Of a stretch of DNA of 64,000 nucleotides, positions 17,440-57,080 are shown one piece after another. The notes below the pieces were generated by a model. It searched no databases, was not told the DNA's origin, and saw only the letters and a list, made by a program, of their open reading frames with translations. The translations under genes were made by a program, and so were the position numbers. How positions within the stretch are numbered: position 1 is the stretch's first letter; each line of letters starts with the position of its first letter. Origin of the DNA: Rhizophagus irregularis (taxonomy: Eukaryota; Glomeromycota; Glomeromycetes; Glomerales; Glomeraceae); NCBI RefSeq assembly GCF_026210795.1, contig NC_089429.1, forward strand, positions 6,233,001-6,297,000. Reading direction: 5' to 3'.

Positions 17440-17765
17440 TTGTTGTTTATTCACACGTTTATAGTCTTTAAAGGATTTTTTTGTGATGTCGTATGCGGTT
17501 TTCCACTTTTTCCAACAAATGGAACGTTCACGCCAAATGTGGAACATCTATCTAATATTAATATATAAATAAATAAAATTAACAATTTCACAATCACATG
17601 ATTCGCATCATGAAAAGAACGAATGTTAAAAATCGTTTCACTATACCTAAGGAGAAAAATAAAGTCCAAGTTCGACCTGAAATAAAAAATTCGGAAAAAC
17701 AAAATTAAAAAAAAAAACTTCAAAGAAAAAAGTTTCAAAACGAACCGATTTGAAACTTACTGATC
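17440..17765 (-). repeat. Spliced-repeat array 2, 3' part
   Basis: The exon ending ATGGGATCGATCA (minus strand) is followed by a donor GTAAGTTTCAAATCGG whose first bases can pair with TTTTGAAACTT about 20 nt downstream. Bases 17560-17660 closely match 55280-55500 (TTTCACAATCACA..GATTC/GATCC and TATACCTAA words), so two arrays share these 3' segments. The order and spacing of GT and AG sites suggest exons of 40-80 nt. Confidence 0.55.
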
Positions 17766-18650
17766 GATCCCATCATCCGGGATAAGGTGGTTGTGATTGT
17801 TTGTGTGTTTGTCCCTGGCGCATGATATCCTCCATAAATGTTTGTTAGAGAAACGATTAGAGGTGGTATGCCAGGACAAGACATTCCAGTATTTATTTGT
17901 TGTGTCTGTGCGTGAAATCCTATCATTGGAGATGAAACAGTACATCCGCAAACAAACGGGTCGGCAGACTTTGATTTTTCTTCGCTTGGCTGTCAATAAC
18001 CGTTCTAGGGGTATGCAAATAAAAAAAAAAAATGGCCACCCATTAAAAGTAATATACTCGATTCGGAAGAAAATACGAACCTGCAGCACTTCTATGTCTT
18101 TCCCCTTTACCATCCTTTTTGAACGCGTATGATACAGTAATTGGTATATTCATCAGATATTGCCCGTTCATCATTGCATCAATTGCCGCATCTGAAGAAT
18201 CGAAATTGTCATATGAAATAAACCCATACCCTTTACTATTACCAGTATCGGGATCTCATGCAATCTAAATTAAATATTTTGACTTAATAAAATTAAATAT
18301 GTAAATTGAATTCGATATTCGATTATTAGTCTATATTAATACCTTGGAAGTAATACCAAAAGTGCTGAACGTATCGTACAACATTTTTTCACCAATACCA
18401 GAATCCAAATTCCCTATAAATAATGAAGCGCTTACGTCCAAATTCTTTTTGCCCAAAGTTACCTAATAATACGACGAAACGTCAATGCTACACAACAAAC
18501 AATAAAAACAAACCAAAATGTTTCCGCCTACTTTATTGACACGAATAGGTTTCCCATACAACTTGATTTGATTCATTATCTGCATCACCTTCACTCATAT
18601 ATTCACAAGACTCAATCTTGTAAGAAGAATCTTAGTTCTTTCCGTTCTTC
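17735..18650 (-). pseudogene. SF3B4-like: Splicing factor 3B subunit 4-like gene (two RRMs), broken
   Basis: Minus-strand pieces in order: MNQIKLYGKPIRVNKVGGN (end of RRM1, 18535-18590); [20 protein letters not shown] with [13 protein letters not shown] (start of RRM2, RNP2 motif LFIGNL, 18380-18470); [20 protein letters not shown] and [20 protein letters not shown] (RRM2 end, RNP1 motif KGYGFI, 18130-18260); [13 protein letters not shown] (18070-18115); then a divergent Gly/Pro tail. This order and the DPDTGNSKG and NGQYL words identify the SF3b49/Hsh49 family, the U2-snRNP subunit contacting pre-mRNA near the branch site. A stop in front of RDPDTG, a frameshift at MNQIKLYG and two more in the tail break it. 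Introns interrupt it at 18089, 18260-18345 and 18460-18530. The RRM1 start is not recognisable. Confidence 0.8.
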
Positions 18651-18850
18651 AGAAGCCACCTGAACTGTTCTTATTACCACGAACCCGTTTCGTCGGGCAA
18701 TACCTACAAGAAAAAGAAACGTTAAAACGTTTCTAAAATAAAAAAAAAGGACTCCCTTTCCCAATTACCTTATTATTCAAATTCCAGTTCGTAGGTTTGA
18801 CCGGCATTCCCGTTCCTACACGAACAATATAAGCATTTTTTTAAGAAATT
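18651..18850 (-). repeat. Spliced-repeat array 2, 5' part with a clear introner-like unit
   Basis: Intron 18704-18768 (minus strand) runs from GTAATTGGGAAAGG through a GAAACGTTTTAACGTTTC palindrome (18716-18733) to TTTTTCTTGTAG. A second 3' splice site lies at 18816-18819, leaving an exon of about 47 nt. This is the same architecture as the plus-strand units at 33.4-35.3 kb. Confidence 0.65.
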
Positions 18851-22173: not shown

Positions 22174-23163
22174 ATGTCAAATCCCGCTAGAACTATTACT
22201 GCTGAAAATATCGAAAATGAAACTGCGCATACTTATTATATAGAATATGTTAGTACCTCAAATTTATAACTTCTATAACTTCTCAAACACAAATTTGGTT
22301 CTAAATATTTAAATAAATATTTAAATTCTTTTAGGAAAAAAAACTTTCCAAACTTGCCTCCAGATTAGCCCATGGAGCTGAAAATCCAGCAGAGATAGTT
22401 ATGGATTTTTTATATATATCAGATGCGGCTACAGGAGCTAATAGTGACTTGTTAGCTCGATATAAGATTACACACATCATAAACGTCTCTCCGTGTGTAA
22501 ATTTTTTTGAAAAAAATGTTCCTCAAAAGTGAGTGATTAAATAAATAATATTTAATTTTATTTTATCTTTTTTTTTTATTAATTTTTTTTTTTAATTAGG
22601 TACCCTAATTGGGATCCTCCCAAATATTTAAGATTAAACACATCAGAAATAAATATAGCAGAATTTTTTGATGTAAGTATACTTTATAATTTTTAATAAT
22701 TATATGAATATTCTTGTTTGGATGATAATAACAATAATTAATTCTTATAAAATTTTTAGGTTTCGAATTTATTTATATATCAAGCAGCACAAGAAGGTGG
22801 TCGAGTTCTAATTTATTGCTGGACGGGAGCATCGGAATCTGCCACATTAATGTTAGCTTATTTAATGAACCATTATTGGCTCACCTATCAGGATGCTTTT
22901 AATTATTTAAACGGAAAATCGATTATAGATCCACACTCGACTTTCCGTTTACAATTAATTAATTACGAATTAGAATTATTAAGAGCTTGGAAGTTTCCGG
23001 TAAGTAAATAAATTTATTTTTGATTTGTTATTATAATCTTTAAATAATATATGTAAAAATAAAATACTAGGTTGACGATGATGATGACATTTCCGAGCGT
23101 GATGAATTAAAATTTGAAGATTATATAAATTATGACGATGAATCTGAGGAGATAACAAAATAG
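22174..23163 (+). CDS. Dual-specificity phosphatase fold, catalytically dead (pseudophosphatase)
   Basis: Five exons (22174-22248, 22335-22528, 22600-22672, 22760-22999, 23071-23163), joined by four GT..AG introns, give a continuous 224-residue protein. Residues about 35-175 match the DUSP domain: IVMDFLYISDAATGANSDLL, ITHIINVSP, YLRLNTSEINI, a helix, then VLIYCWTGASESATLMLAYL and a C-terminal QLINYELELL. The signature HCxxGxxR reads Tyr-Cys-Trp-Thr-Gly-Ala-Ser-Glu: His is Tyr and the phosphate-binding Arg is Glu. The general-acid Asp loop (normally near xxDxxxxxI) reads TSEINI without Asp. Loss of Arg should abolish catalysis, so a binding or scaffold role (STYX-like) is inferred. The tail is Asp/Glu-rich (VDDDDDISERDE). 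Reading frame and splice sites are fully intact, so this is not simple decay. Confidence 0.85.
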
Positions 23164-23279: not shown

Positions 23280-23560
23280 TTAAAATTCGTTAAAAAATAA
23301 AGAAAAAAAACATTAGTAATGTTTCTAAAACAAAAATAAATTAAAGAAATACCTTCATTTCACCCAATTTCAAAGTTTAAGAGGCTGTTCATAAAAAAGG
23401 AACGTTCAGTTAGTACGTTAGTAACGTTCCTAAAACAAAAATAAAATGTAAAAAATAAAAAGAAATACCTCTATTTCGCTCATTAAGGTTCAAGAGGCTG
23501 TTCCTGAAAAAGGAACGTTAACAATGTTCCTAAAACGAAAAATAATAATAATAAAAAAGA
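23280..23560 (-). repeat. Spliced-repeat array 3a with paired palindromes
   Basis: Near-repeats of about 110 bp share AAGAGGCTGTTC followed by an inverted-arm motif. The arms are AAACATTA/TAATGTTT (23308-23324), GGAACGTT/AACGTTCC (23399-23430) and GGAACGTT with AATGTTCC (23512-23530). Although the base sequence differs between copies, the arms remain mostly complementary within each. It lies just 3' of the pseudophosphatase gene, on the opposite strand. Confidence 0.55.
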
Positions 23561-24779
23561 ACAATGTGCGTCAGACAATCATTTGACATTTCGGCGTATC
23601 CTATTCAAGTTCATGTAAGTTGCATGGTTACGCATAAAAAATTTCCTGATGTTCATCGACGAAGGAAGGGTTTTTTTCAAAATTTATTAAATGAAATCGA
23701 ATATAATTTAAGTCGGTGGATTAGGTTTTTTTTATAATAGATATTAAATTTTCCTAATTTTAATGAGAGGAAATAGATACGGAGAAAGATTTTATATTAA
23801 CATTTTTATTAAGATAGAGGGGAAGTGTTTTTTTTTTTTCATGATTAACATTTCTCATGATTAATATTGAATTTTCTTTCATGAATTTAAATGTATGTCT
23901 GGAGGGAAGTATAGAAGAGGGTTTTCTTCTTAGGATTAGTATTGAAGAGTTGGGTAATCACCAATTTATATTGATCAAATGAGCACGTTTTGTCTATTTC
24001 TTCGGATGATGTTACAGACACCGAAATTGAAAAAATAACGATGAAACAAGAAGATATTTAAAGACTAGCGTAAAAGATGTTTTGGAAGGACGTTTATTAT
24101 GTAAGAATATCTTACAATATATTTAGGGAGTTTGGCTTAATACAAAGCAGCATCAATGTGAATCTATAGAAAAATAATGTTCCGTTCCGTTTCCAATTAT
24201 TTGCTAGGTACAAAAGAATGATCCTCTCGTAAGGTAATATACAGTATTTATATATGAACATGTATTCTTAAAATATTTTAAAAATAATAAAAAAGGACTA
24301 CTAGAAATTAATTAGATTTATCATAAATCAAATTTTATACGATTAGAATTATATATGAAAAGACGTGATCCGCTACTTTTTGATAATAAATTTTTTACCG
24401 ACTTAAATAATTAATGCATCGCGTGAAACTTTTTAAGATACATATTATGTTAAAATATAATTGAAATTTCATAAAATTTATTTATACGATAAATAAGAAA
24501 ACCGGATTAAATATACATGATAGAATTGCTATCATTCTCAGTTAAACGAGAAAATCTATACATGAAAATTTTTAATGCTATACTGCTATACTTTATAAAT
24601 TTAGAAATTGCTAGATAACTTGATAGACTTTGATGTTCAATAAAAAAAATTTTTAAAATTAAAAAAATTTTCCTAATCACTTTTATTATTTATTTAAGTA
24701 AAACAAATCAAAATTCAAAAATAATCTATATAATAAAAGCTTAAAATAGAAACATGGGTGTTAAAATTTCGATTAACCT
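23561..24779. other. AT-rich region without a recognised gene
   Basis: Only short frames are seen, with no recognisable domain or element ends. Confidence 0.4.
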
Positions 24780-25420
24780 CGTAATTTACCATCTAATAAT
24801 CCTGGAAGACATATTGAACGCACCTGTTTTCTACAAAAAGGAAAAAAATGAAACGTTAAAATGTTTCTTTAAGTAAATTCCAATCAAATCTTCTATTGCA
24901 ACATCCAAGTCCTCCAAACAATGTTGCTCTTAACCTGCACCTTTCAAAACGTTCAGGTAGGAGTATCTAGGGTTAAAGAAACGTTAGTAAAGGTCCTACT
25001 AACGTCCCCTAACTCCCAATTCCCAACGCCTATCTTTCATTCAGAATCCAAGGCCAAATCTTCGTTCAGACGTTCAAGTAGGTACAGTACCCACAAAAAA
25101 AAAGACAAAAGAAATGCTTATAAAGTTTATTAACATTCCCTAAATCACCACTCCCTAATTCCTACCTTCCATTGAAACCGATCTCAAGTTCTGAAGTCAA
25201 ATATCCAAGGCGTCCAGTAGGTACCTACAAAATAAAAAGAAATCAAAAGGAACATTAGTAAAATTGCATTAATGTTCCTTAAATCCTGCTTCTCCAAGTC
25301 TACTTTTTAACTAGAAAACTTCGAAGTTAGATGAACTTACTAATTTCATTCGTCTTATACTTCGAAATTGGTATGGCTGGAAACGCTCAGATAGTACTTA
25401 AAACTTTTCTTTGAAAAAAA
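24780..25420 (-). repeat. Spliced-repeat array 3b
   Basis: Minus-strand 3' splice sites occur at CTACAAAAAGG (about 24833), CCCACAAAAAAAAAG (about 25091) and CTACAAAATAAAAAG (about 25224). Palindromes are at 24850-24867, 24978-25007 and 25249-25278. The last has arms GGAACATTA/TAATGTTCC, differing from the usual GAAACGTTA/TAACGTTTC by two paired changes. The intervening exon-like pieces carry CTGGACGCC and CTTGAACGTCTGAACG (minus strand), related to the exon words of arrays 4 and 5. The 70-codon frame at 24921-25133 crosses these units and is not a gene. Confidence 0.6.
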
Positions 25421-30824: not shown

Positions 30825-31610
30825 ATTTAATAACTGTATTATTATGCATGCCACTCAAGGTCATGTCTAATTTTAAGTTATTTTATAAATGTTTAGTTTT
30901 TTAAATAAATAACGTGTTGTAACCAATATTTTAATCCCACCTTCTAATAGGATATTTATGTTTTACTATATGATGAATTATTCAGCATATTTTATTTTTA
31001 ATTTACCTACCATGTTGAACTACCGACAAAACATGGTAAATCATAAGAAGAAAAGAAAATATTATAACTTTTTTTTTAAAAAAAATGAATACATTTTTTT
31101 ATTTGATTAATATTTTAATACTATCTTTAAACTTAAAAATTCTTTGGTGATAAATATTCCACTTATAAACTCATTGTATCTAAAAATACATCTCTTGATC
31201 GATTGGTTTTGGGTAATAAATTTTCGTATCAACGTTTCGATTCTAACGGGTTGCGATCCCTTTCTTTCGTCGATCAATATATAAGGTATCTTCAAATATA
31301 AAATTGCGCTTTGCGCCTATATAATTTTAATTTTTAGAATCTCGCATTTTTTTAACGTACCCATATTCACTAATCACAAAATTCTTCTTTTACAGTATTA
31401 GATTGAACTTTTGAAGATATATTAGAAAATCTTTACAAACATCATTTGAAATAAGTAATTCAATGAGAATAAGTGCCATGATTTATTTATTTAATACATG
31501 GTTGAACCAAAAGAGTGATATTTTAGAATTATTAGAATATCAATTTTTTCTAAATCATTTTATTTTTATAATTTTTTTATTATTATCGTATTATTATTCA
31601 GAATTCTGTA
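30825..31610. other. No gene recognised
   Basis: AT-rich sequence. The 62- and 65-codon frames here have no recognisable domain. Confidence 0.4.
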
Positions 31611-31612
31611 TA

Positions 31613-31796
31613 CAGTCAGAACTCGATATACCGATATTCGATATACCGATACATTATTAAAAACTTGATATACCGATAAAATTTTACATTCCCACTATAT
31701 GTGAGGACATATAAATATCGGTATAATTTGATATAACGATATTTTTTAAATTTTTTCTTATGAGTCCCGACATATCGTTATATAAAGGTTTGACTG
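31613..31796. mobile_element. pogo/Tc1-mariner-like MITE, 184 bp
   Basis: The element begins CAGTCAGAACTCGATATA and ends with the inverted TATAAAGGTTTGACTG. It is flanked by TA on both sides (31611-31612 and 31797-31798). TA duplications with CAGTCRAAMCT-like ends and internal CGATATAACGATA words are typical of pogo-type MITEs. No transposase is present. A second, shorter relative is at 39326-39411. Confidence 0.75.
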
Positions 31797-32967
31797 TACG
31801 TTATAATTACTTGATGATTATGATTACAGGACAATTACTGGACAATTACTGAATGATTATGATTATAGGACGATTCCAGGACAATTACCGGACAAAATTG
31901 TCTTTTTTATTAGATGACCTGCAGGGGGTAGCACAATTTTGAAAAGCGCAATAATAAAATTATATATAAAAGTTTTTAAAAAATCAGGAGCCAACGATCG
32001 ATAGGTGTTCATCACCATGAAAATGAATTCGTTGACGGATACCTTTTGATTTTTTTCTATCAATATAATCCCTCGGTTCACGTTCAATTACAGGTGTATT
32101 TTCGAAGAAAAAATTATATCGATTCTGAATAATGTTTTTATTTTTTGTTCTTATTTCTCGTCAACTATTTTGCGCATGCTACTGCAGTTCTTTTTATTCA
32201 ATGTTGTATTCTGGCTTTTCACCATTCGGAGAATGCAAAATCATTCACATATTGTTCATATACAGTAGGTTGGAATAAGGTAATTCTTGGAATATTTTGG
32301 CTCGCGAAAATATGTTTGTTTCATTGTAAAGTAACGCGACCGTAATGAAAAAAAATACGAAAATATTTATATTTAGGATTTAAATTTGATGTGAAAAGTT
32401 GCAAGTAGGCTTTTTTACTGTGTTTTAACCTTAACCGAAACTTGTAACACTATTGTGACATTTTTGCAAATGACGTTGTGTGCCAGGTTCGTGGCACAGC
32501 AAATTTTAAAAAAAACATCATTAAGGATTTTTTCTTTGACATGAAGTTTTTAAACTTATATAGTAGATGTAATTTCACCTGCTCTGCAAGTTTAATTAGG
32601 ATTCGGAAGAAGGTTACGAATGCCGATTTTGACTTTACATATAAATGATTGATTCTACCGTCTTTGTCGATCGTTTCCAAAAATGGATTTCGTGAAAGAA
32701 AAATTTTAAGTATCATTATTGACTTATTTAACAAAATTCGCCTAAGTAAACTTAAAAATTACATCTTTCTAGTAATTTTTGAAGTTAAAAAAATTCTCTC
32801 TGATTATCGTTGCGCCACAATTTGCTGGCTGCGCACGAACCTGTCAGGCTGTCACACAAAAAGGTGCTAAATTACTTATAATATGACTGACGCAGAAAAT
32901 TTACATCATATATGTGACGTCATTTAGGGCTAATTATGTTTTTAATATCGGGGAATATTTTAAATTG
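31797..32967. other. Region without a recognised gene
   Basis: Several 60-95-codon frames overlap on both strands (31863-32087, 32145-32345, 32450-32734, 32649-32870). None shows a family motif or convincing splice context. Confidence 0.35.
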
Positions 32968-33110
32968 CCGGAAATTAATTTCCGGTTAAATAAACAAGTA
33001 CTATAAAAATTCCGGAAATTAACTGGATTTTTTATATTACCATTATTAATATTCCGGCGGGATATAAAAGATAAACATTTACCGGGTTTATTATATCAGT
33101 CACGTGATAT
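32968..33110 (+). promoter_or_regulatory. Candidate promoter of array 4: palindrome, TATA-like box and CACGTG
   Basis: A perfect palindrome CCGGAAATTAATTTCCGG lies at about 32968-32985. A related TTCCGGAAATTAACTGG follows near 33010. A TATA-like GATATAAAAG is at about 33061-33070 and CACGTG at about 33102. All lie just upstream of the pyrimidine leader. The regulatory role is inferred from position. Confidence 0.35.
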
Positions 33111-33159
33111 AATACTAATAATCGATCTTTTTTTACTAAACTTTTTTTTTAATGAAACT

Positions 33160-33283
33160 TCCTCTCCCTTTTCTTTCGTTCCCCCCTTTCCCTCTTTTTT
33201 TCGTTCTTTCCTTCCTCTCTTTCGTTTCCCTCGCCTTTTCTTTCGTTTTCTCCTCTCTTCAACCTTCCCTTTCACCTAAATTA
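33160..33283 (+). promoter_or_regulatory. Pyrimidine-rich leader of array 4
   Basis: About 120 bp consist almost entirely of C and T (CCTCTCCCTTTTCTTTCG, TTTCGTTTCCCTCGCC). The tract ends about 140 bp before the first unit. The same kind of tract, in the matching orientation, precedes arrays 1, 2 and 5. Confidence 0.45.
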
Positions 33284-33426
33284 AACGCTTCAAAGTGAAA
33301 AAAATAAGTCTAATTTTTTTCAAGTTACGTTCTCGTTTCAGCGAATCTCTTGTGGAAATGTAAAATTTTTGGGTTTTCTAAGTAATTTTTTTTTCGTTTT
33401 TAGTACTAATCTTCCTTTTTTTATAG

Positions 33427-34565
33427 GGTTTGTCTTCGTTCCGGCCTTCAGACGCTCGGGAATTTTGGTTACTTTTTAGATGGCCAAAAAACGCGTTGAA
33501 ATTCGGTAAGAGGAGGGATTTTTTTTTTTCTATTTTTAAAAAAAAATTTTTGGGAAGAGGCGTATTTTTCATTGACAAAACGCTTATTAACGTTTCGGGG
33601 GTTTTTTTTAGATGGTTTTCTGGATCTCTTATCGGGATTCCGGTTAGACATTAATTTTTTTTTATTAATTTTTTATTTTTAACGAACTTTACTAAAAGTT
33701 TAGTTCCTTTTTCTTTTTTTAGGCGGATCTTTCAGGCCGGACGTTAGTAAACTTCTTTTTTTTAAATATTTTTATTTTAACGAAACTGTTACTAACGTTT
33801 CATTTTTTTCTTTTTGTAGACAGTCAATCCTTTGGAATATTTGGACGTGTGCGGATAGTTTTTGACTTCTGTAAATAATTCTTTCAACTAAACTTCTAAC
33901 GTTTCATAAGCTACCGCCTACCGGTCTTCGGACGCGTGGAAAACTCGGTAAGGGGTTTACTTTTGTTAATTCTTTTAATGAAACGATCGCTAACGTTTCG
34001 TTTATTTTCTTTTTAGACTTCGGAGCATTTGACGCGTAAGGTACGGGGAAATGGTGAGTTTCGCAACTAAAAAGTTAGTCTTTATATTTATTTTTATATT
34101 TATTTTTTTTTTAAAAAAAAAATAGAAACGTTTATTAACTTCTTATTTTTTACTTTTTCTGTAGATTTGAGTTCGAGATACTGTACCTTAAGTTCGGAAC
34201 GCCGATTTGGTATGTTTCTCGAAACTTCAATTTTTTAGTAATTTAATTAGAAACGTTTATTAACGTTTATATATATTATTTTTGTAGGGTTTCGGTCTTT
34301 GGTTGATGCGTGTTCCGATTCGTACGATTATACTTTCCTTTAAATTAAGACTTTCTTCTAAGAGTTAAATTATAATATTGTAGCCGCCTGTATAATATCT
34401 TTTTATACATGATTTTGATATTTTTGATTTAAAATAACTCAATTAATTAATTTTTTAAGGAAGGTGAAAAGGGTAAGTTTCGTGATGTTCGTTACGAAAC
34501 TTTCATTTTTTTTATAATCTTATTTAATTAAAAACGTTAACGTTTCTATATAATTTTTTTTGTAG
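33427..34565 (+). repeat. Spliced-repeat (introner-like) array 4, best-preserved copy
   Basis: At least eight exon/intron units run in tandem on the plus strand. Supported introns include 33506-33611, 33643-33722, 33743-33819, 33948-34016, 34054-34164, 34210-34287 and 34473-34565, with exons of 13-79 nt. Most introns hold an inverted motif just before the 3' tract: GAAACTGTTACTAACGTTTC (33782), GAAACGATCGCTAACGTTTC (33980) and GAAACGTTTATTAACGTTT (34250). The CTAAC in the right arm is a good fungal branch site. Several donors can fold: GTATGTTTC with CGAAAC, and GTAAGTTTCG with ACGAAACTT. Exons share words such as CCGGTCTTCGGACGCGTGG and do not make a convincing protein. The last unit splices into the carrier gene at 34566. 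Confidence 0.7.
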
Positions 34566-34578
34566 GTTAGCGAATTCA

Positions 34579-35046
34579 ATGATAAGCGCAGTCCTATTTA
34601 CAACATATATTACAGTTTTTTCACAATTTAATGGAACTTCTTCTTTTTTTGAATCGGATTATAATCATAGTTTACATTCACCACCACCATTTTCAATTGT
34701 ATTTACCTCTGGAGCTATTGTAGGAGCTGCGCAATCTCTAGTTGCCGCACCATTAGACTCTTTAAAAGTTAGATTTGAAGTAAATGATTTATTAGAGGGA
34801 AAGCACAAAAGCATGTTCGTTTTTGCTAAAACTACTTGGAAAGAATTGGGAGTTGCAAGTATTTATCGTGGAATTGGCTTAACGTTGGTAAAGGTTTGTG
34901 TTAATCAAATTAATTTTATTATTTATGTTTTTATGCTTTTTTTGATAATCTTAATTTTTAATTTATTGATTATATAGGATTCTTTATCTTGTGGATTGTT
35001 TTTTGGAATTTTTGAATTTGTCAAACAACAATGTTATAATGCATAA
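34579..35046 (+). CDS. Mitochondrial carrier family protein, truncated
   Basis: Exon 34579-34893, a GT..AG intron (34894-34977) and exon 34978-35046 encode 127 residues. Residues about 40-75 hold FTSGAIVGAAQSLVAAPLDS followed by LKVRFEVND, containing the carrier signature Px[DE]xx[KR] (PLDSLK). This is followed by YRGIGLTLVK-DSLSCGLFFGIFEFVK, the second helix of the repeat. Carriers have three such repeats in about 300 residues and shuttle metabolites across the inner mitochondrial membrane. Here only the last repeat and part of a preceding segment are present. The ATG follows a spliced-repeat intron and no upstream carrier exons were found, so it is either a 5'-truncated copy or a captured gene end. 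Its own intron lacks the array palindrome, indicating a different origin from the surrounding introns. Substrate is not predictable. Confidence 0.7.
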
Positions 35047-35290
35047 CGCAACGGGTGTTGCGAAACTTTCTTTTCATTAGAAAGAAGCAGATTCTAACGC
35101 TACTTACTTCATTTTTTTTTTGATGTTTCAGAATTTTGTTCTAGAATATTGGATATGGTATGTTTCATAATTGCAAAACTTTTTTAAATTTGAAACGTTT
35201 TCTAACGTTTCTCTATTTTTTTTGTAGTTTTTGGATTTTAGGTTTGGAAAACTGCAATGAGCATCTAGTGTTTTTTTTGGATAATTAGAT
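35047..35290 (+). repeat. Spliced-repeat array 4, 3' units downstream of the carrier
   Basis: After the carrier stop, an exon (35132-35157) ends in GTATGTTTCATAATTGC. The intron 35158-35227 contains GAAACGTTTTCTAACGTTTC (35192-35211) and ends TTTTTTTTGTAG. A further acceptor, TTTCAG, lies at 35126-35131. These could be 3' untranslated exons of the carrier transcript. Confidence 0.6.
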
Positions 35291-36638
35291 TAATATAGAT
35301 CTTTAACAATTAACATAGATTTTAATATAGATACTAGTATAGATTAAATAATGTATCTTTTAATTAATAAATAAACCGATTATAAACAATTACTACAATT
35401 AATAAATTTAACGCTATTTAACAAACTATAAGATATCTAATGTACTGATGATTGTTACTAAATTAACCTAATTTAACACATCATCGATAATTTTTATCAT
35501 GTGATCTTTTCATCCCGACAGTCTATCTATTATTGTGAATTTTAAGTGAGAAAGTAAAATATAGAAATAGAATGCTTTTAATAGGATAATTAGGGTCTTC
35601 TATTATAACGTATTTTAACTATTTTAAGGGCAGTGAGCCCATTGAGTAACCCATACCCCTGAAAAGAAAAATGAGAATAATAGCATCTAAACACATGCTT
35701 TTGACCGACAATAATTTATAAAAATTTTAACTTCTTTTAGAACCTAACTTCCTTAAACGTTAATTTAATTTTTTCCACTTTTGTTAAACCTTTCGGTTAA
35801 ATTTATTCCATCACTCTTTTTGGAATTGCGTAACAGGTGATGCACAGAAATCGCAGAAGATAATACTTAAAACTGTTGTATTAATGATTATGTAAATTTT
35901 TTAAATTCTTTCTTTAACCGATTTTTCTTCGAAAGTTCAAATCTATATGAATACGTTTGTGAAGGAAATTACTTGAACCAATATCTGATAAGATTCGTAA
36001 CACGACCAATAGCTAAAATACAATACACTGTATCCCGATTTCATATTTTTTGAAAACATTATAACAAAAATTATACAATATTTATTAAATCAGACACTTT
36101 ATAAAATATGTACCTAAACTTTTTTTTTGATAGTAGTTTTTTATTCTTTATAAAAATTTGAGTTAAAATGTTTCAATGTTACAGTTAAAAATTCTTCATA
36201 TTTCATTATACCCTATCATAACAAATTCTCAATTTCAATCAAAGTTTTTTGTTTATAAATTTAAACAAAGAATTCAATAAAAGAAAAATGGATTTATAAA
36301 AAATGGACAAATTGATAAAATTGAAGTGTGGATAATTAAGCATTGATGCTTCGCCGAATGTATTATTTTTTTCCATGGAGTCAGGCGTTAAATTTGTTGC
36401 AGAAGGTACCCTAATAGAGATAATGGCGCATTTATTTTACTTTTTTTTTCTTCAAATACAATTATGAAATATTGTAACATTTATTATTATTATTATTATT
36501 ATTTGAATGTTCTTTGATCATTTTTTGACGTAACAAGTGAACAAATCGTTCCGTTTCAAATTTTATTTTTCCGATATTTTAATAAAATCTTGAAGTTTAG
36601 CTCAAATTGAATCGGCGTGTGGCTGTCGAAAATTTCTT
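35291..36638. other. Intergenic, no gene recognised
   Basis: AT-rich. It includes an (ATT)n microsatellite at about 36480-36504 and an AT run at 36121-36135. Confidence 0.45.
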
Positions 36639-36832
36639 ATAAAAAGGCTCTGAAATTCCTAGCGAATTACAATTAAAATACGCGCAACCAATCTAAATTT
36701 TTATTAATATTTCTAATAATATGGCCCAAAATAGCCTTGATTGGGCCATTAGCATAAATGTTAACGACGATGAACGAGTTATTGATAAACTATTAAAAGT
36801 TCTTATGTTAATATTGATAAACTATTAAAAAT
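36639..36832 (+). other. TATA-linked short ORF with internal duplication
   Basis: CTTATAAAAAGGCTC (about 36636-36650) precedes an ATG at 36721 that opens a 35-codon frame (MAQNSLDWAISINVNDDERV and KLLKVLM). Its end lies in a 31-bp imperfect direct repeat containing GATAAACTATTAAAA (36783 and 36817). ATGGCCCAA at the start also pairs with TTGGGCCAT 11 bp later. It could be the 5' end of a decayed gene, and the family is unknown. Confidence 0.25.
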
Positions 36833-37324
36833 TTTTATGTTAATAATTTTTATGATTCATTATTATCATAGAGTTATTACATAAAGAAATTTAATTTATG
36901 GTTCTTTTTATTAAATCTCCTTTAAACTATCGCGCACGCGCTTGATGCACCAAAGTTCTCAAAACATGGTCAACAACCGATTATGGTATTGACCTAACAA
37001 GTGCTTTATAATAACTAGTATATTAATAAAATAATAACTTGTATAACTTGTAAATGATAAATCACACACATTATTTTAGATATGAAATTTTTTTAACACG
37101 TTTAAACTCCCTACTAATTGATATTCGGCTAATTACATAAATTATATGCAATGTGAAGAACTAGGTAAAACCGATGGAATAGATGTATTATATATATACC
37201 TGACCCTCTTAATATTAATCCTGATTCTATATCAAATGTTGAAAAAAAATTCTTAAATATATAGAAGATATACTTTTAAAATTTCCTAAAAATTAATATT
37301 TTTTTTCTAAAAAAAAGAATTTGG

Positions 37325-38179
37325 TAGTGCTCCTAACGGGTCAAGTCGGGTCGGGTTTTGTAGATATGTTGTGCCTCAGATCGATTCTTGCCTCAGATTG
37401 AAGCTCACGCACCTCAGATTGAGATTGTCATCTGACGCACCTCAATTGCTAATAAAAATGTGCTATAATTAAACATCAAAATTTCCAATTTTAATGTATT
37501 TTTAAGTACTAAGTAAACTTATTTATCATTACAATCCTATAATTTCAGATTAATTGGAATCATACTTATTAAATCTTTTCATTTGAAAAATGACTTAAAA
37601 TTTAATGATTTTTCAGATAAAACACAAATATAAACTTCAATATAAATCGGATTTACATAAACATTTCAGGAAACATGTAACTCATTATGGTGCACAAGTT
37701 TGCTTATGTTACAAAAAGTGGTTTAATTAATGAGAAAAAAAGTTTACTTATAACAGACTTTATTGAATGATTCAAATGAGGTGCGTCAGGTGACAATCTC
37801 AATGTGAGGTGCGTGAGCTTCAATCTGAGGCAAGAATCGATCTGAGGCACAACAGATATACCCGACCCGACCAAAGTGAAAAGGTCTTGACTCTAAACCC
37901 GACCCGAGTATAGTTCGACCGGATATCCCGGGTCTAAACCCGAATTTTCAAAGGAAAAAAAATGAGCAACCACCATTTTTTCGGCATTATAATGAATCTT
38001 TAATGAAATTATAATAGATATAATAGATTTGTAATATTATGAAGCTTTGTTATCATTCATTTATTATAATTAATTAGTATTTGTTCAATAACTCGGGTCA
38101 ACCGGGGGTCACCGGGTCATAAAAATTATTGAACCCGACCCGAGCTTTTAAGGGTCGACCCGTTCCGTTAGGAGCACTA
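37325..38179. mobile_element. Second hAT-like element (855 bp), hosting a nested MITE
   Basis: Inverted ends TAGTGCTCCTAACGGGTC (left) and TAGTGCTCCTAACGGAAC (right, read inverted) are flanked by identical GAATTTGG 8-mers (37317-37324 and 38180-38187). As in the element at 574-1399, the subterminal regions are full of GGGTC/GACCC and CCCGACCC words, so the two are one family. No transposase frame remains. About half its length is a different element inserted at 37368-37853. Confidence 0.9.
37368..37853. mobile_element. Nested MITE, 486 bp, about 80-bp near-identical TIRs
   Basis: Both ends start GTTGTGCCTCAGATCGATTC, and the inverted repeats extend about 82 bp with about three mismatches. 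Each arm contains repeated GCCTCAGAT and GCACCTCA words. A 6-bp direct repeat AGATAT flanks it (37362-37367 and 37854-37859). A 6-bp duplication does not fit hAT (8), Harbinger (3) or mariner (TA), so the superfamily is left open. The near-identity of the arms indicates recent movement, after the host hAT element had inserted. Confidence 0.85.
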
Positions 38180-39769: not shown

Positions 39770-40400
39770 GATAGGATTAAGGTTGGTTAGGGTTAAGATA
39801 GGATTAGCGAGGATTATGGTTTAAAAGAAAGGAAATTGTTCTGTCTGGTGTTTCATTTATTTGTAAGTGATTTATGATTATAAAAGAGTAATGAATCAGG
39901 TGATTGATTTAGTTGCTCGAATAATTTGTGTATAAAAGAGTGTATAAATTAAATTTTATTATGAACAATAGGAAATCAGGTGATTGAACCAGCAATTTGA
40001 ATAATCTTTATGTGCTCAAATAATTTTGTGTATAAAAGAGTGTATAAATTAAATTTGATTATGAGCAACAGGAAATCAGGGATTAAACCAGCAATTTGAA
40101 TAATCTTTATTTGTAAAAATTATGCTCAATGGTGATTTAAACCAGTATTTTATTTTATTTATAATTTGTATAAATGAAATAAACGGTGGGGATTGGTTGA
40201 TGAATAATAATATTATCATGTTAAGAAATTGGATAAATAGGTTAAGATGAGAAGTAATAGGAATTAAGGAATGGATAATTAGGTTATGGTTAGGGTTAGA
40301 GTTAGGGTTAAAGTGAGAAGTAAAAGGAATTAAGGAATGGATTAGGTTAGGGTTATGGTTAAAGTTAGAGTTAAAATGAGAAGTAAGATGAGGATGAATT
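39770..40400 (+). repeat. Tandem repeats and degenerate TTAGGG telomere-like tracts
   Basis: TTAGGGTTA-type words occur at about 39787-39800 and densely at 40270-40380 (GGTTAGGGTTAGAGTTAGGG). Between them are about 80-100-bp tandem units sharing TGTATAAAAGAGTGTATAAA (39930 and 40030) and GGAAATCAGG. The minus-strand 113-codon frame (40076-40417) is a translation of these repeats (PNPN/HFNPN periodicity) and not a gene. This looks like an interstitial degenerate telomeric block rather than a chromosome end. Confidence 0.65.
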
Positions 40401-49450: not shown

Positions 49451-50110
49451 TTCGTGAAATGATCGAAATAGTTTAATAGTTTGTCAGTATATCGCTATTC
49501 AGACAACTATAGCTATAATATACTGCTCTTCACCCTTCCTTATTTCTCTCGTCTACAAAGAAAATAAAATACATCAAATAATAATCCTTGATCAACTTCA
49601 TAATAAGAATTTAACGTTTCCTTCCACATCACGTGGTCAACGAATAAATAGGTCGCATGTTGCTCATATCTTCCCCATCTCCTTTAGCTACAAATAGAAT
49701 AGTAATTCTCGCTATACAGTATTTAAACATAACACCTATTTTCCTTCAGTTCTCAAATGCCAATTGTTTACTTCTTAGGATTTTGAATATTACATGATTT
49801 TGGAATATTTCTGCGAAATCAACAGTCATTTCAAAAGTGTTCACAACAACCTATGATATGAAGCCAAGGAAGTAAAGGATAATATTCACAATAGACTTTT
49901 TACTAATAATAACATCAACTCTTCCTGCAAGAAAATACCAATAAAATCAGATCACTTTCTGGTTAAGGTGTTGATATGAAACCATCATAAATGCAAAAAA
50001 AAGTATCAATTACCGTACGAATTCATTCAATCGGGGTAATAATTTATTAAACAGATATCATCATTTACCTATTAAAATAATTATAATAAAATTAATAAAT
50101 TAAATAAATA
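49451..50110. other. No gene recognised
   Basis: AT-rich sequence with short frames only. Confidence 0.35.
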
Positions 50111-50111
50111 A

Positions 50112-52330
50112 ATAGAGTCCTTTCAATATCTGGCTGTGTTTTAAACATTACCTTAAATTTGATATAAAAAGCTCTATATAATCTTAATTATCCATCATTG
50201 CGAGTAATAATTAGTTTTGGGAAACTAGATTGAACTGATGTCGTGCCAAATGTTAAGAAATGAGCGCCAGTCACAACACATCTTGCTATTTTCTTAGCAC
50301 GTTTAGAATCCTGAGCAAGTACCATATAAATCGTTCTTTAAAGTATTTGTTGCTAAAGTTGGAATTCAGTAGCACTATCTGATTCAAATGATCAAGTTAT
50401 GAAGTAATATCCATATTAAGTTTAAAATGTCATTCGATCGAGGTAATAGTTTTATTAAATAGCTATCATTATTTACCTATCAAAATAATTAATAAATTAA
50501 ATATTATAAAAATAATAAATAGAGTCCTTTCAATATTTGGCTGTATTTTTTATGATTTAAACATTACCTTAAATTTGATGTAAAAAGCTCTATATAATCT
50601 TAATGGATCCATCGTTGCGGGTAATAATTAGTTTTGGAAAACTAGATTGAACTGATGTCGTGCCAAATGCTAAGAAATGAGCGCCAGTCACAACACATTT
50701 TGCTATTTTCTTAGTACGTTTAGGATCCTGAACAAGTATCACATAAATCGATCTTCGAAAGTATTTGTTGCTAGAGTTGGAAATTGGAATTCAGTAGCAC
50801 TATTTGATTCAAATGATAAAGTTGCGAAGTAATATCCATATTAAGTTTAAAATGTCATTCAATCGAGGTAATAGTTTTATTAAATAGCTATCATCATTTA
50901 CCTATTAAAATAATTAATTATAATAATATTAATAAATTAAATATTATAAAAATAAATAAATAGAGTCCTTTCAATATCTCGCTAATTTAAACATTACCTT
51001 AAATTTGAGATAAAATTTCTATATAATCTTAATGATCCATCATTGCGAGTAATTAGTTTTGGAAAACTAGATTGAACTGATGTCGTGCCAAATGCTAAGA
51101 AATGAGCGCAGTCACAACACATCTTGCTATTTCTTAGCACGTTTAGGATCCTGAACAAGTACCACATATATCGATCTTTAAAAGTATTTGTCGCTAAATT
51201 TGGAATTCAGTAATAGTACTATCTGATTCAAATGATTAAGTTTTGAAGTAATTTCTATATTAAGCTAATATTTCATTCAATCGGGGGCCTCATTATATTT
51301 GTTGTTTCTAATATAAGCAAAAATTTCATAGTATATGAAATTTGTTGTAAGCCATAATGATCCGTTACGACAAGATAATAAAGGAATAATTTATAAAGAA
51401 AATCCATTATATAGTAGATACTTTTTTTTTAGTAAGAATTTGCAAATGTAAATCGAAAATTTTTTTAATAAATATTTTGAATTTAAGGGTAAACCAGTTA
51501 TTTGTTGCAGATTTTACAATGGGGTATAACAAATCCTATATAAAAGGTAAAAGTAATTAGAATTAAGTAAAAAAAAACCAGGAAATCCAAAATTGTTACC
51601 TACTTCATTAAAATTGGGAATACCGTTACTTTCAATGTAATATCCATTTCTTTTTACGTAGCTTTCCAAATTTTATGATGAAGATTATTCTAGTAATAGT
51701 TTATTAAATAGCTATCATCATTTACCTATTAAAATAATTATAATAATATTAATAAATTAATATTATAAAAATAAATAAATAGAATAGAATTCTTTCAATA
51801 TCTGGCTGTATATAATTTAAACATTACTTGAAATTTGATGTAGAAAGCTCAAGAAATGGGCGCGAATCACAACACATCTTGCTATCTTCTTTAGCACGTT
51901 TAGGATCCCGAACAAGTACCACACAAATCGTTCTTTAAAAGTATTTGTTGCTGAAGTTGGAATTTCAATAATAGCACTATCTGATTCAAATGAAGTAATT
52001 TCTATATTAAGTTTAAAATATTAATTTAGTAATTAGGGCAAATATTGATTGCGGATTTTGATAGAGGAATCTTAATAAATAATAAATCAAACATCAATAA
52101 ATTTAAATATTTTTACTTGCCGATGCTTCTACTCTCGTCCAACTAAATAGTAGGTTTTGCAGTAGGACTTGTGTCAGTGCCCATTCTGGCAATGGGATTC
52201 TGACTTGAAGGCGTTCAGCCACTATTCAGATCAAAGAAGAGAGAACATCTAGATTCGATACCCAGGCACTTGATTATTACACAGTGCACGTGCTAATCTG
52301 ATAACCGATATCTTGTGATTTTTTCGACGC
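50112..52330 (-). repeat. Tandem ~0.4-kb units carrying an exon-like segment
   Basis: Units start with AGAGTCCTTTCAATAT at about 50114, 50521 and 50962, with a later diverged copy near 51787 after an unrelated spacer (51290-51690). Each holds a minus-strand segment reading QDPKRAKKIARCVVTGAHF and FGTTSVQSSFPKLIITRNDG. It is followed by a GTAATGTTTAAA donor (plus strand TTTAAACATTAC) and preceded by an intron-like AT stretch. The copies differ by substitutions and small indels, with some frames broken. A final upstream segment at 52265-52325 reads ISVIRLARALCNN, matching the start of the isolated copy at 38430-38600. This looks like local duplication of one exon plus flanking introns in an unidentified gene family. 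Confidence 0.6.
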
Positions 52331-55274: not shown

Positions 55275-56990
55275 GTCCACAGTTTCACAATCACACGATC
55301 CATATCCTGAAAAGAATGAACGTTATCTCATATAAGAATATCATCTGTTCCAAAAGATGCTAAACCTAAAAGTAAAGAGAAAGTAACATTAATGAAATGT
55401 TTCTAGGTTATCTTCCCAAATTCATACTTCCCAAGAAAAGTCTATCCTACCTATAAAAAAATATTCCAAGTCCAATTCGTTATACCTAAAGAAAAAAATC
55501 AATCAACGCTCATCCCGGTAAATATACTTGTTAACTGTTAGTTCCAAAAGAACTTGCCTCTTTTCGGTACCTACAAATAGAAAAGAAAAAGTAGTTAGTT
55601 TCTTCAAAGCAAAATTAAAAAAAAAACCTTAAAAAAAGGTTTCAAAACGAACCGTTTCAAAACTTACCGATCGATCCTACCATCAAAGTTCAAGGAAGCC
55701 GAAAACTACAAAAAAAAAGATAAAAAAAATGAATAAAAAAATATAATAAAAAAATATAATAATTATTTTAATGAAATTTCGGAATTTTTTTTTCGAAACT
55801 CACCTGAGAATCCGGTCTCACGCGTCCAGGTTCTGGAAAAACTATGGCTTGAAACTTCTTTTGGAAGCTCTAGAACGTGTACAGAGTGTAGAAGGTGTCT
55901 CATATGTAATTGATCCAAAAGCCAAAGGATGCTCTTTATGGTACTATATACTCTTGATCCTACTACTCTAGATGGTTTATTTACACATCTTGAGTAAAAT
56001 TGTGGACAATATTCGTGGTGAAAGTACAAAAAGACATTGGATTATTTTTGATGGTGACGTAGATTCTGAATGGGTAGAAAGTTATGTCACTAAACGTTTG
56101 GTTATTGGTGTTATTTGGAGATTTCGTACGTGGAATTACAATTGTACCGCATGCATCTCCTGGATCATCTGTTATTGACTCCTCCCGACTGTCTAAAAAA
56201 AGAAGAAAACGAAATATTAGTGAACGTTTCATTAGACGCGTTATCCTGTACGAGGAAAAGATTACCGAGTTTAAGACCAAAGAATAGCGACTTTGTGATC
56301 GAGCTTTTGAAGTTAAAAAACGAGAACGCGAATATCAGACAAGGAACTTAAATATAGTTTTCCATCGAATTCCCACGCGTCTCCCGGCCATCTAAAAAAA
56401 AAAAGAAAATGAAACGTTAACGAACGTTTCACTAAAATAATTTATTTAAAATAAAGAAAACTCTACCCACTGAAATCTATGTCCAAAAGAACTGAAGAAT
56501 CGCCTACAAAGAAAAAAACAATTGTTAGTGAACAGTTCGTTAAATGAATAAATTAAAGTAAAAATACAACCACACTAAATCCAGCACGTTCAAGAAACAG
56601 TAATTACAATTTCATTAAAACAAAAAAATTTAAAAAAATTTAGAAAGAAGTAGTCTGAAACCTAAAGAAAGAAAATAAATGAACGTTAATAAAAAAACCG
56701 AAACAAAAATTAAGATAATGAAAAAAATTCGAATACTAACTTTCTTTTCCAAAGAGAATCATCAAAAGAGAAAAATCGCTGAAACATAAAAAAAGAAGAG
56801 TTGAAGACCTAAAAAAGAGAAGACGAAAGTTAATAAAGAAAATGACAAAAACAAAATAGAGAAGGAACAGGCGAACACAACAATTAAAAGAAAAAAACTG
56901 AAAAACTTACGAAATTTCGCGTCCAGGAGACCAAGAGAGAGCGAAAGAACCACTCAAAAAAACAAAAAATAGTCCGGCGTTTTGATAAGG
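55275..56990 (-). repeat. Spliced-repeat array 5 (minus strand)
   Basis: A clear unit runs from donor GTAAGTTTTGAAACGG (at 55667) to acceptor TTTCTATTTGTAG (55571). It is preceded by a 38-nt exon (55668-55705) and another intron, 55706-55803, with donor GTGAGTTTCG. Further acceptors lie at 56193, 56392 and about 56510. Palindromes include GAAACGTTCGTTAACGTTTC (56411-56430, minus strand) and GAAACGTTCACTAATATTTC (56211-56230). Exon pieces repeat CCTGGACGCG words (55820, 56375 and 56920). The 3' part matches array 2 at 17560-17660. Confidence 0.65.
55823..56115 (+). pseudogene. Dynein heavy-chain AAA2 fragment, antisense within array 5
   Basis: The plus strand reads RPGSGKTMA (Walker A, 55823-55849), then LLLEALERVQSVEGVSYVID with PKAK, then LYGT..LDPTT, DGLFTH, and [20 protein letters not shown] with [12 protein letters not shown] (Walker B, 56038-56058). 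This is the conserved P-loop to Walker B stretch of a dynein heavy-chain AAA+ module, most like AAA2, which drives retrograde microtubule transport. A normal heavy chain is over 4000 residues. Here only about 95 remain, with a five-base insertion in the LYGT-LDPTT region, a short deletion before DGLFTH, a frameshift at HIL and loss of homology after EWVES. No start, promoter or neighbouring dynein exons are present, so it is a captured piece. Confidence 0.8.
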
Positions 56991-56999
56991 ATTTTTTCA

Positions 57000-57080
57000 A
57001 CAGAAAGAATGAGAAGCGGAAAAGGAGAAAGAAAGACGAAGCAAAAGGAACGAAGGAAAGTAAGGGAAAGAAATAGTAGT
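57000..57080 (-). promoter_or_regulatory. Pyrimidine-rich leader of array 5 (purine-rich on plus strand)
   Basis: Nearly pure A/G on the plus strand (GAGAAGCGGAAAAGGAGAAA, AAGGAACGAAGGAAAG), hence pyrimidines on the array's sense strand. It sits just upstream of the first array-5 unit, like the tracts at 7.9, 19.0 and 33.2 kb. Confidence 0.4.

What the first reader, a model, noticed from the sequence alone, without database searches (positions are those of the whole stretch)
33427..35290. Tandem exon/intron units with two predicted intron hairpins (introner-like spliced repeats)
Seen directly: at least nine plus-strand units, each with a 13-79-nt exon, a GTAAGT/GTATGT donor, and an inverted motif GAAACGTT..CTAACGTTTC placed before a T-rich tract and TTTTTGTAG. 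The right arm contains the branch-site word CTAAC. The donor bases (AAGTTTCG) can pair with ACGAAACTT about 15-20 nt downstream. Known: introners are repeated introns spread by transposition. Inference: this is an introner-like family, or a multi-exon noncoding repeat gene, in which both splice-site regions are held in hairpins, possibly to control splicing. I know of no description of this arrangement in Glomeromycotina.
Basis: partly seen in the sequence, partly recalled or inferred. Interest (0 to 1): 0.85.

Follow-up and report, generated by a model that had tools for sequence, protein, structure and literature searches.

The report
Transposon arrays of hairpin-locked introns
This fungal genome carries mobile DNA elements filled with rows of tiny exons and short intron-like spacers whose branch sites, and often donor sites, are folded into matching hairpins, and some such rows have swallowed pieces of ordinary host genes; whether they are really spliced is untested here, but the arrangement looks new and is easy to test.

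Summary
The plus-strand array (about 33,100-35,230) is one of many in this 146.7-Mb genome. In 65 genome regions the splice grammar (donor, branch word, T-tract, AG) is strongly strand-specific and evenly spaced. The branch hairpin, and in many units a donor hairpin, keeps pairing through changes on both arms. Exons are mostly 20-60 nt, show no triplet periodicity and diverge faster than introns, so the arrays look noncoding.

They do not behave as classical introners: no unit was found in a coding gene of the window. One family of arrays is cargo of DNA transposons with inverted ends (CATCAGCAAGTTT) and 2-bp target duplications (3 of 3 examined). Seven of eight large elements with these ends contain a Plavaka transposase domain; none of 21 small ones do, and at least 11 of those carry arrays. 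Two other conserved ends also follow arrays.

Three window arrays contain host-gene pieces: a mitochondrial carrier (477 bp, 98% to a parent on another contig, intron kept), SF3B4 and, antisense, dynein heavy chain. No transposon ends were found around the window's own arrays. Recent copies look neutral. Splicing, and its control by the hairpins, remain inferred.

The parts
33100..35230 (+). main array, total extent with similarity to arrays elsewhere in the genome (interrupted by the captured gene piece)
   Evidence: blastn of window 31,500-37,500 against the 65 regions: similarity only in 50-nt bins 33,100-34,300, 34,450-34,550 and 35,050-35,200
33106..33260 (+). leader: CACGTGATATA motif followed by a C/T-rich tract with CTTTCGTT repeats; promoter or 5' part of the transcript by inference
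   Evidence: sequence; similar in 4-8 other regions; same order seen by eye in L030 and L017
33506..33611 (+). intron-like unit, 106 nt, GTAAGA..TTTAG
   Evidence: sequence; overlapping R1 match 33,513-33,615 is weak, E 0.41
33743..33819 (+). intron-like unit, GTTAGT..TTTTTGTAG, branch hairpin ACGAAACTGTTACTAACGTTTC
   Evidence: sequence; R1 33,733-33,820, E 0.0011, with its own start set 7 nt further left than the donor named here
33948..34016 (+). intron-like unit, 69 nt, GTAAGG..TTTTTAG, branch hairpin GAAACGATCGCTAACGTTTC
   Evidence: R1 33,945-34,017, E 1.4e-4
34054..34164 (+). intron-like unit, 111 nt, GTGAGTTTCG..TCTGTAG
   Evidence: sequence; R1 only a weak match at 34,051-34,115, E 9.9
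34210..34287 (+). intron-like unit, 78 nt, donor hairpin GTATGTTTCTCGAAACTTC and branch hairpin GAAACGTTTATTAACGTTT
   Evidence: R1 34,207-34,288, E 3.6e-5
34473..34565 (+). best intron-like unit, 93 nt: donor hairpin GTAAGTTTCGTGATGTTCGTTACGAAACTTTC, branch hairpin AAACGTTAACGTTT, acceptor TTTTTTTTGTAG
   Evidence: R1 34,470-34,566, 67 bits, E 5.8e-9; folding energy z -3.1, 0 of 200 shuffles as good
34568..35044 (+). captured piece of a mitochondrial carrier gene (its intron, about 34,894-34,977, kept)
   Evidence: 468 of 477 bases identical, no gaps, to L090 1,490-1,966 on contig C31; Mito_carr PF00153 E 9e-17
35047..35131 (+). remnant of a hairpin intron whose donor half is missing at the capture junction (CGCAACGGGTGTTGCGAAACTTT .. 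TTTCAG)
   Evidence: sequence, junction; R1 35,040-35,123, E 0.36
35158..35227 (+). intron-like unit, 70 nt, GTATGTTTCA..TTTTTTTTGTAG
   Evidence: R1 35,155-35,228, E 3.1e-4
55330..57060 (-). second array (decayed), with an antisense piece of a dynein heavy chain gene at 55,827-56,180
   Evidence: R1 hits at 55,570, 56,391, 56,503 and 56,192, E 7.8e-6 to 0.1; three pieces matching C10:1805564-1806499; dynein E 8e-13
17560..18780 (-). third array with a sense piece of the splicing factor gene SF3B4 at about 17,786-18,614
   Evidence: R1 hits 17,676-17,763 and 18,703-18,771, E 0.0014 and 0.004; genome match C2:3380794-3381669, 88%; SF3B4 E 1.3e-44
24785..25420 (-). further array
   Evidence: R1 24,830-24,937 E 0.088; sequence; 17 regions similar in the bins at 24,850-24,900

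Best explanation
The array is a noncoding transcription-unit-like stretch, leader first and then a row of short exons (mostly 20-60 nt) separated by spliceosomal-type introns of about 90 nt. The introns carry a covarying hairpin over the branch site and often a second one that starts 0-3 nt inside the donor. Such arrays are cargo of mobile DNA elements. In one family the elements have 13-bp perfect inverted ends and 2-bp target duplications and share these ends with longer, Plavaka-transposase-bearing elements, which presumably move them (shown: ends, duplications, shared ends, domain position; inferred: mobilisation in trans). The window's array is an older relative of these arrays; its own transposon ends were not found. 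Pieces of host genes have been inserted at DNA level between its hairpin introns. Most likely action (inferred): in the nascent RNA the hairpins form in cis and keep the branch adenosine, and partly the 5' splice site, out of reach, so that splicing of the array is slow or conditional. Single genomic copies then decay without constraint.
For: Grammar: 383 branch-hairpin-plus-acceptor hits on the majority strand of 65 regions against 16 on the other, about 41 on both strands in dinucleotide shuffles. Acceptor words fall 21-29 nt after the branch A in 270 of 323 matches from 447 sense branch words; the antisense strand gives 4 matches from 108. The nearest GTRAGT lies 50-79 nt upstream for 167 of 455 sense words and 1 of 113 antisense. 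GTRAGTTT 332 sense, 18 antisense. Hairpins: with only the outer anchors fixed, 93 of 133 donor hairpins have at least 4 inner pairs; permuting 3' arms gives 28.6 on average and 41 at most in 2,000; inner position 3 is T-A 50, A-T 42, C-G 35, other 6. Branch hairpins: 106 of 241 with at least 3 outer pairs against 49 mean, 65 maximum. 39 double-sided cells against 14.8 shuffled. The model R1, built without window sequence, finds the window units. Mobility: pairs of regions 90-97% identical over 2-3 kb on different contigs; 11 regions end in the same CTTGCTGATG with different flanks; inverted end CATCAGCAAGTTT and duplications AT, AT, AG in 3 of 3. 29 elements with both ends; of the 123 Plavaka places, seven lie in 7 of the 8 elements over 7.8 kb and none in the 21 small ones; array DNA (the 40 best places) lies in 11 of 21 small ones, in 0 of the 7 Plavaka-bearing ones and in the eighth large one. 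The window array's DNA matches three of the two-ended elements. Captures.
Against: No RNA data: neither transcription nor splicing was shown. Of 455 sense branch words 145 have no T[TG]TAG and 272 no GTRAGT at the expected side, so many units are decayed or use other donors. Recent copies show no clear constraint: stem changes to G-U (29) and to broken pairs (30) are equal, G-U and A-C mismatches are about equal at the CpG stem positions (39 against 31), and exons change fastest. The number of further pair types in the alignment is not above shuffles (25 against 23.6, 148 of 500). The donor is only slightly less accessible than in shuffles (fewer than half unpaired: 262 real, 264 shuffled of 321), and the branch five-mer as a whole is not less accessible (0.47 against 0.45). 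For the window's own arrays no inverted ends were found. Regions were chosen by these motifs or by similarity to the window, so counts per region are not genome averages.
Confidence: 0.62

Rival explanations
1. DNA-level palindromes: the hairpin words are subterminal binding sites for a transposase (as in CACTA-type elements, recalled) or palindromes kept perfect by template switching between the arms (recalled mechanism); the splice-like words are secondary.
For: In regions C16:3323555, C13:4843030 and C2:2372120 part of the array consists of palindromes of two types with T-rich spacers and, as far as seen by eye, no donors or acceptors. G-U and A-C mismatches are about equally common (39:31), as expected if both DNA strands count alike. 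The arrays lie inside DNA transposons.
Against: Binding sites would not need GTAAGT at the base of one hairpin, a branch word in the other, a pyrimidine tract and TTGTAG at 21-29 nt, on one strand only.
Confidence: 0.2
2. Introner-like elements: each intron is itself the mobile unit and was inserted into previously uninterrupted sequence.
For: Introns of adjacent units are more alike (mean 0.75) than their exons (0.55), random units 0.53 and 0.47; 27 of 121 adjacent pairs have introns over 0.8 and exons at most 0.6 alike.
Against: Exons change faster than introns even between recent copies, which can explain the same pattern. Some arrays duplicate exon and intron together (9 of 121 adjacent pairs; a run of near-identical units in C1:7180961). 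No hit in an ordinary coding gene of the window.
Confidence: 0.1
3. A repeat-exon protein gene, for example an effector family such as SP7.
For: Rhizophagus has repeat effectors with a conserved intron before the first repeat (PMC11333574, passages).
Against: Exon lengths mod 3 are 44/66/60 of 170; related exons differ by single bases in length (33 and 34 nt); exons diverge fastest.
Confidence: 0.03

Closest known systems
Plavaka-type DNA transposons (Pfam PF18759)
   Same: Seven elements with the same inverted ends as the array carriers contain this transposase domain.
   Different: The 21 small elements lack it and at least 11 hold hairpin-intron arrays instead. Nothing of the kind was seen in the listings of the searches named in the report.
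Gene-capturing elements: Pack-MULEs, Helitrons, soybean CACTA element Tgm-Express (PMC1947982, start of abstract in a search listing)
   Same: Host gene pieces, introns kept, beside or inside a mobile element, potentially spliced into new combinations.
   Different: Here the pieces sit between arrays of structured short introns. For the window's arrays the element ends are not established.
Fungal introner-like elements and symmetrical stwintrons (PMC8469720, passages)
   Same: Repeated introns with internal inverted repeats and predicted secondary structure.
   Different: Those sit seamlessly in coding exons, are supported by expression data, and their symmetry spans the intron ends and is reported as not necessary for removal; here local hairpins cover specific splice signals, exons look noncoding, and a whole transposon moves.
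Nonconventional introns of Euglena (PMC6221363, start of abstract in a search listing)
   Same: Stable secondary structure tied to the splice junctions.
   Different: Those lack canonical borders and the U1-complementary donor; these have GT, CTAAC and TAG.

Membership tests
Plavaka-mobilised DNA transposon (family with CATCAGCAAGTTT ends) | inverted terminal repeats and short target duplication | tested here: met
   CATCAGCAAGTTT / AAACTTGCTGATG; duplications AT, AT, AG in 3 of 3 elements with both flanks read. That 2 bp is the Plavaka norm was not checked.
Plavaka-mobilised DNA transposon (family with CATCAGCAAGTTT ends) | transposase in full-length members | tested here: met
   PF18759 inside 7 of 8 elements longer than 7.8 kb; the eighth holds two stretches of array DNA instead
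Plavaka-mobilised DNA transposon: the window's own array | inverted ends around the array | tested here: inconclusive
   none of the three known ends found in the window, only short AT-rich inverted words beside the arrays; its DNA does match arrays inside three two-ended elements
Introner / introner-like element | individual intron copies inserted in coding genes | tested here: not met
   12 model hits at E < 0.1 in the window, all within arrays (11 sense, 1 antisense over the main array); tested in the window only, without gene annotation
Introner / introner-like element | experimentally spliced | not testable with these tools
   no RNA data
Gene-capturing (Pack-type) element | piece of a host gene with an identifiable relative or parent | tested here: met
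   mitochondrial carrier, 468 of 477; SF3B4 88%; dynein pieces 87-94%
Gene-capturing (Pack-type) element | capture lies between the ends of one mobile element | tested here: inconclusive
   ends of the window's elements not found
Known RNA family | match to an Rfam model | tested here: not met
   0 matches at gathering score in the window
SP7-like repeat effector | exon repeats in frame | tested here: not met
   lengths mod 3 44/66/60 of 170 exons

The most novel reading that the evidence does not exclude
A class of selfish DNA elements that carry a splice-locked exon cassette: rows of introns whose branch adenosine and donor are shut in cis by hairpins, between which host-gene pieces lodge. 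The locked introns may stall the spliceosome on the element's RNA. By analogy with stalled-spliceosome-triggered RNAi in Cryptococcus (recalled, not looked up), they could feed small-RNA production against the element and the parents of the captured pieces, or switch captured exons on when conditions melt the AU-rich stems.
Probability: 0.2. Interest if true: 0.93.

Novelty: new variant of a known kind. Interest (0 to 1): 0.76.

Why it matters
It turns an odd repeat into a testable system: transposons that spread structured intron arrays in what is probably an arbuscular mycorrhizal fungus. In Rhizophagus irregularis, repeats that could not be classified, multi-copy genes set aside, occupy 24% of the genome (PMC8647823, passages). 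The arrays offer hundreds of natural variants for asking how branch-site and donor structure affects splicing, suggest a route by which DNA elements could make new introns and chimeric transcripts, and may produce false multi-exon gene models in such genomes.

Tried and rejected
Rfam found nothing at gathering score, ARAGORN no tRNA. The SP7 effector idea was dropped on exon phase. A Helitron was considered because of a hairpin near the 3' end (GGCGT..ACGCC) and dropped when inverted ends and 2-bp duplications appeared. The CACTA-type transposase PF02992 (155 matches, not all listed) was tried as carrier; 71 of the listed places that I entered lie in none of the 29 elements. Selection on stems in recent copies: the apparent conservation of stems is about what requiring an intact stem in one of the two sequences would give, so I do not use it. 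A 472-base sample of a large element held no open frame over 64 codons. One script did nothing. Other eukaryotic species could not be searched with these tools: the held genomes are prokaryotic, and no scan of metagenome contigs was allowed.
Full report
WHAT WAS CHECKED. The window is G000:C1:6,233,001-6,297,000 of a 146.7-Mb genome in 32 contigs. I add three corrections. A clean donor hairpin is present in only part of the window's units (by eye). The stretch 34,568-35,044 is a captured gene piece. Similarity to other arrays runs from about 33,100 to 35,230.

GENOME-WIDE OCCURRENCE. The branch palindrome GAAACGTTN{2,8}CTAACGTTTC has 144 forward and 130 reverse matches, reversed control 0 and 0; perfect palindromes are counted on both strands. 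The donor hairpin GTAAGTTTCGTN{5,12}ACGAAACTT has 16 and 22, control 0 and 0. DNA of the array itself has 84 matches, a lower bound (40 of 257 candidates scored). The 88 loci cut out by these three searches merge into 65 regions. They were chosen by these motifs or by similarity to the window, so they show what arrays look like, not how common units are per base.

SPLICE GRAMMAR. In the 65 regions a parser for a stem of at least 7 over a branch word followed by a pyrimidine tract and YAG gives 383 hits on the majority strand, 16 on the other, and 41 on both strands of shuffled sequence. The acceptor word T[TG]TAG falls 21-29 nt after the branch A in 270 of 323 matches from 447 sense branch words; the antisense strand gives 4 from 108. 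A GTRAGT lies 50-79 nt upstream for 167 of 455 sense words and 1 of 113 antisense; 145 of the 455 have no such acceptor and 272 no such donor within reach. GTRAGTTT occurs 332 times sense and 18 antisense; 242 of the 332 have AAACTT at hairpin distance. In 389 loosely parsed units the donor is GTAAGT in 199, the acceptor TTGTAG in 170 and TTTTAG in 128, the median intron 90 nt. Of 170 exons between adjacent units the lengths modulo 3 are 44 (0), 66 (1) and 60 (2), so no reading frame is kept.

HAIRPINS. Donors chosen without regard to pairing form stems of at least 10 bp in 128 of 337 units against 14.2 in single-letter shuffles, and of at least 12 bp in 78 against 2.4. Fixing only the outer anchors AAGTTT and AAACTT, 93 of 133 distinct hairpins have four or more inner pairs; permuting the 3' arms among them gives 28.6 on average and never more than 41 in 2,000. 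The third inner pair is T-A in 50, A-T in 42, C-G in 35, with 6 others. For branch hairpins 106 of 241 have three or more outer pairs, permuted mean 49, maximum 65. An alignment of 28 introns, picked from units with donor stems of 9 or more so that the percentage paired is biased, has 39 cells changed on both sides against 14.8 in shuffles, 11 pairs so changed against 7.5 (8 of 500 shuffles as high), and a covariation score of 0.209 against 0.139 shuffled and 0.061-0.107 for slid partners; the number of further pair types is not raised (25 against 23.6, 148 of 500). Relatedness of copies inflates such counts. Folding 321 distinct units shows the branch adenosine paired (median unpaired probability 0.07; 0.32 in shuffles that keep the motifs; p 1.6e-5) and the donor slightly so (0.24 against 0.32, p 0.012), while the branch five-mer as a whole is not less open (0.47 against 0.45) and the acceptor is more open than in shuffles (0.40 against 0.25). 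The best window unit folds at z -3.1.

INDEPENDENT TEST IN THE WINDOW. None of the 28 introns behind model R1 occurs in the window. In the window R1 gives 12 hits at E < 0.1: 11 in arrays in the sense direction and one on the opposite strand over the main array. This pointed to further minus-strand arrays at 55.3-57.0, 17.6-18.8 and 24.8-25.4 kb, and less surely at 23.3-23.6 and 7.4-8.0 kb.

RESULTS AGAINST SELECTION IN SINGLE COPIES. Between recent paralogues, stem changes that keep a G-U pair (29) equal those that break a pair (30); both-sided changes are 3 paired and 2 unpaired. At the two CpG stem positions G-U and A-C mismatches are 39 and 31, at positions 3-5 they are 6 and 6. Outside CpG, A/T sites differ by 5.6% in exons, 3.8% in other intron positions, 1.9% in donor stems, 1.6% in branch stems and 2.2% in other sequence, but requiring an intact stem in one sequence alone would about halve the stem values. 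I read this as neutral decay of single copies, with structure maintained in the source lineages, as in other mobile elements (inference). It also leaves room for the DNA-palindrome rival.

MOBILE CARRIERS. Many regions on different contigs are 90-97% identical over 2-3 kb. Eleven end in ..AAACTTGCTGATG followed by unrelated sequence. The other end, read for three elements, is CATCAGCAAGTTT.., its inverted repeat, and the flanking 2 bp are AT/AT, AT/AT and AG/AG. Genome searches with the two ends (40 of 64 and 40 of 72 candidates scored) give 29 elements with both ends: 21 of 3.4-5.0 kb and 8 of 7.8-8.6 kb. Of the 123 places of the Plavaka transposase domain PF18759, seven lie in 7 of the 8 large elements and none in the 21 small ones. 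The 40 best places of a search with array DNA (40 of 625 candidates scored) lie in 11 of 21 small elements, in none of the 7 Plavaka-bearing ones, and twice in the eighth large one, C9:2,897,248-2,905,676. Absence in the other small ones is not shown, because few candidates were scored. Two further conserved 3' ends, TCGACCTGTG (4 regions) and GTTTCTGTAAAG (4 regions), also follow arrays; their other ends were not found. The window array's DNA matches three of the two-ended elements. Its own ends were not found.

CAPTURED GENES. Window 34,568-35,044 is 468/477 identical, without gaps and with the intron, to a mitochondrial carrier gene with a longer open frame on C31. The left junction lies 2 bases after an acceptor, the right one inside the donor hairpin of the next unit, whose first part is missing (by comparison with hairpins of the same type elsewhere). 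The minus-strand array at 17.6-18.8 kb holds an SF3B4 piece with an in-frame stop and apparently retained introns (by eye); the closest copies are C2:3,380,794 (88%) and C6 (83-84%), and the sequence right of the junction recurs in 12 other places that begin at the same base or the next. The minus-strand array at 55.3-57.0 kb holds an antisense dynein heavy chain piece, made of three stretches (87, 94 and 89% identical) from C10:1,805,564-1,806,499 that are not contiguous there. So all three of the larger arrays in the window contain host DNA; whether this is usual elsewhere was not tested.

INTERPRETATION. Shown: strand-specific intron grammar, covarying hairpins over the branch site and often the donor, exons without reading frame, mobility of one carrier family that shares its ends with Plavaka-bearing elements, DNA-level capture. 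Inferred: transcription, splicing, mobilisation in trans by the Plavaka enzyme, and that hairpins make splicing slow or conditional. The introner reading fails its main test in the window, and the whole transposon is the mobile unit where that could be determined.

LITERATURE. Searches of the held open-access library combined Rhizophagus irregularis with SP7, long non-coding RNA, Helitron and introns; Glomeromycotina with introns and hairpin; gene fragments with Rhizophagus; introners with Rhizophagus, 0 papers; introners more widely; capture elements; Plavaka with Rhizophagus and related terms. In the listings I saw no description of these arrays. Subscription papers and preprints are not held, so this is weak evidence of novelty. 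I saw passages of PMC11333574, PMC8647823 and PMC8469720; PMC1947982 and PMC6221363 I saw only as search listings with the start of the abstract.

Noticed in passing
window 7,440-8,000 minus: Another array-like stretch: C/T-rich leader, short exons, several TTTTTGTAG or TTTTTTTAG acceptors; no similarity to the 65 regions.
   Followed up: partly
window 23,290-23,600 minus: Two units with branch hairpins of the changed type GGAACRTT..AACGTTCC (instead of GAAACGTT..AACGTTTC), near a phosphatase-like open frame at 22,760-23,011 (the likeness is by eye).
   Followed up: no
window 40,241-40,386: Tandem repeat of period 63 containing GGTTAGGGTTAGGGTTA, a telomere-like tract inside the chromosome.
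   Followed up: no
window 50,023-51,283: Three copies of a 425-base tandem repeat.
   Followed up: no
G000 contig starts: Six of the 40 listed 3' ends of the Plavaka-type family lie within the first 100 kb of a contig (C32, C14, C7, C2, C22, C30), possibly a preference for chromosome ends.
   Followed up: no
regions C2:2,372,120, C13:4,843,030 and C16:3,323,555: Parts of the arrays are runs of two palindrome types with T-rich spacers and no obvious splice words, either decayed introns or a different function of the palindromes.
   Followed up: partly
65 regions, recent paralogues: CpG sites differ far more than others (57 of 178 CpG positions in exons, 32%, against 5.6-7.7% of other exon positions), as expected from cytosine methylation of the arrays.
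   Followed up: partly
G000:C9:2,897,248-2,905,676: An element of 8.4 kb with the same ends but two stretches of array DNA and no Plavaka match, perhaps two elements in tandem or nested.
   Followed up: no
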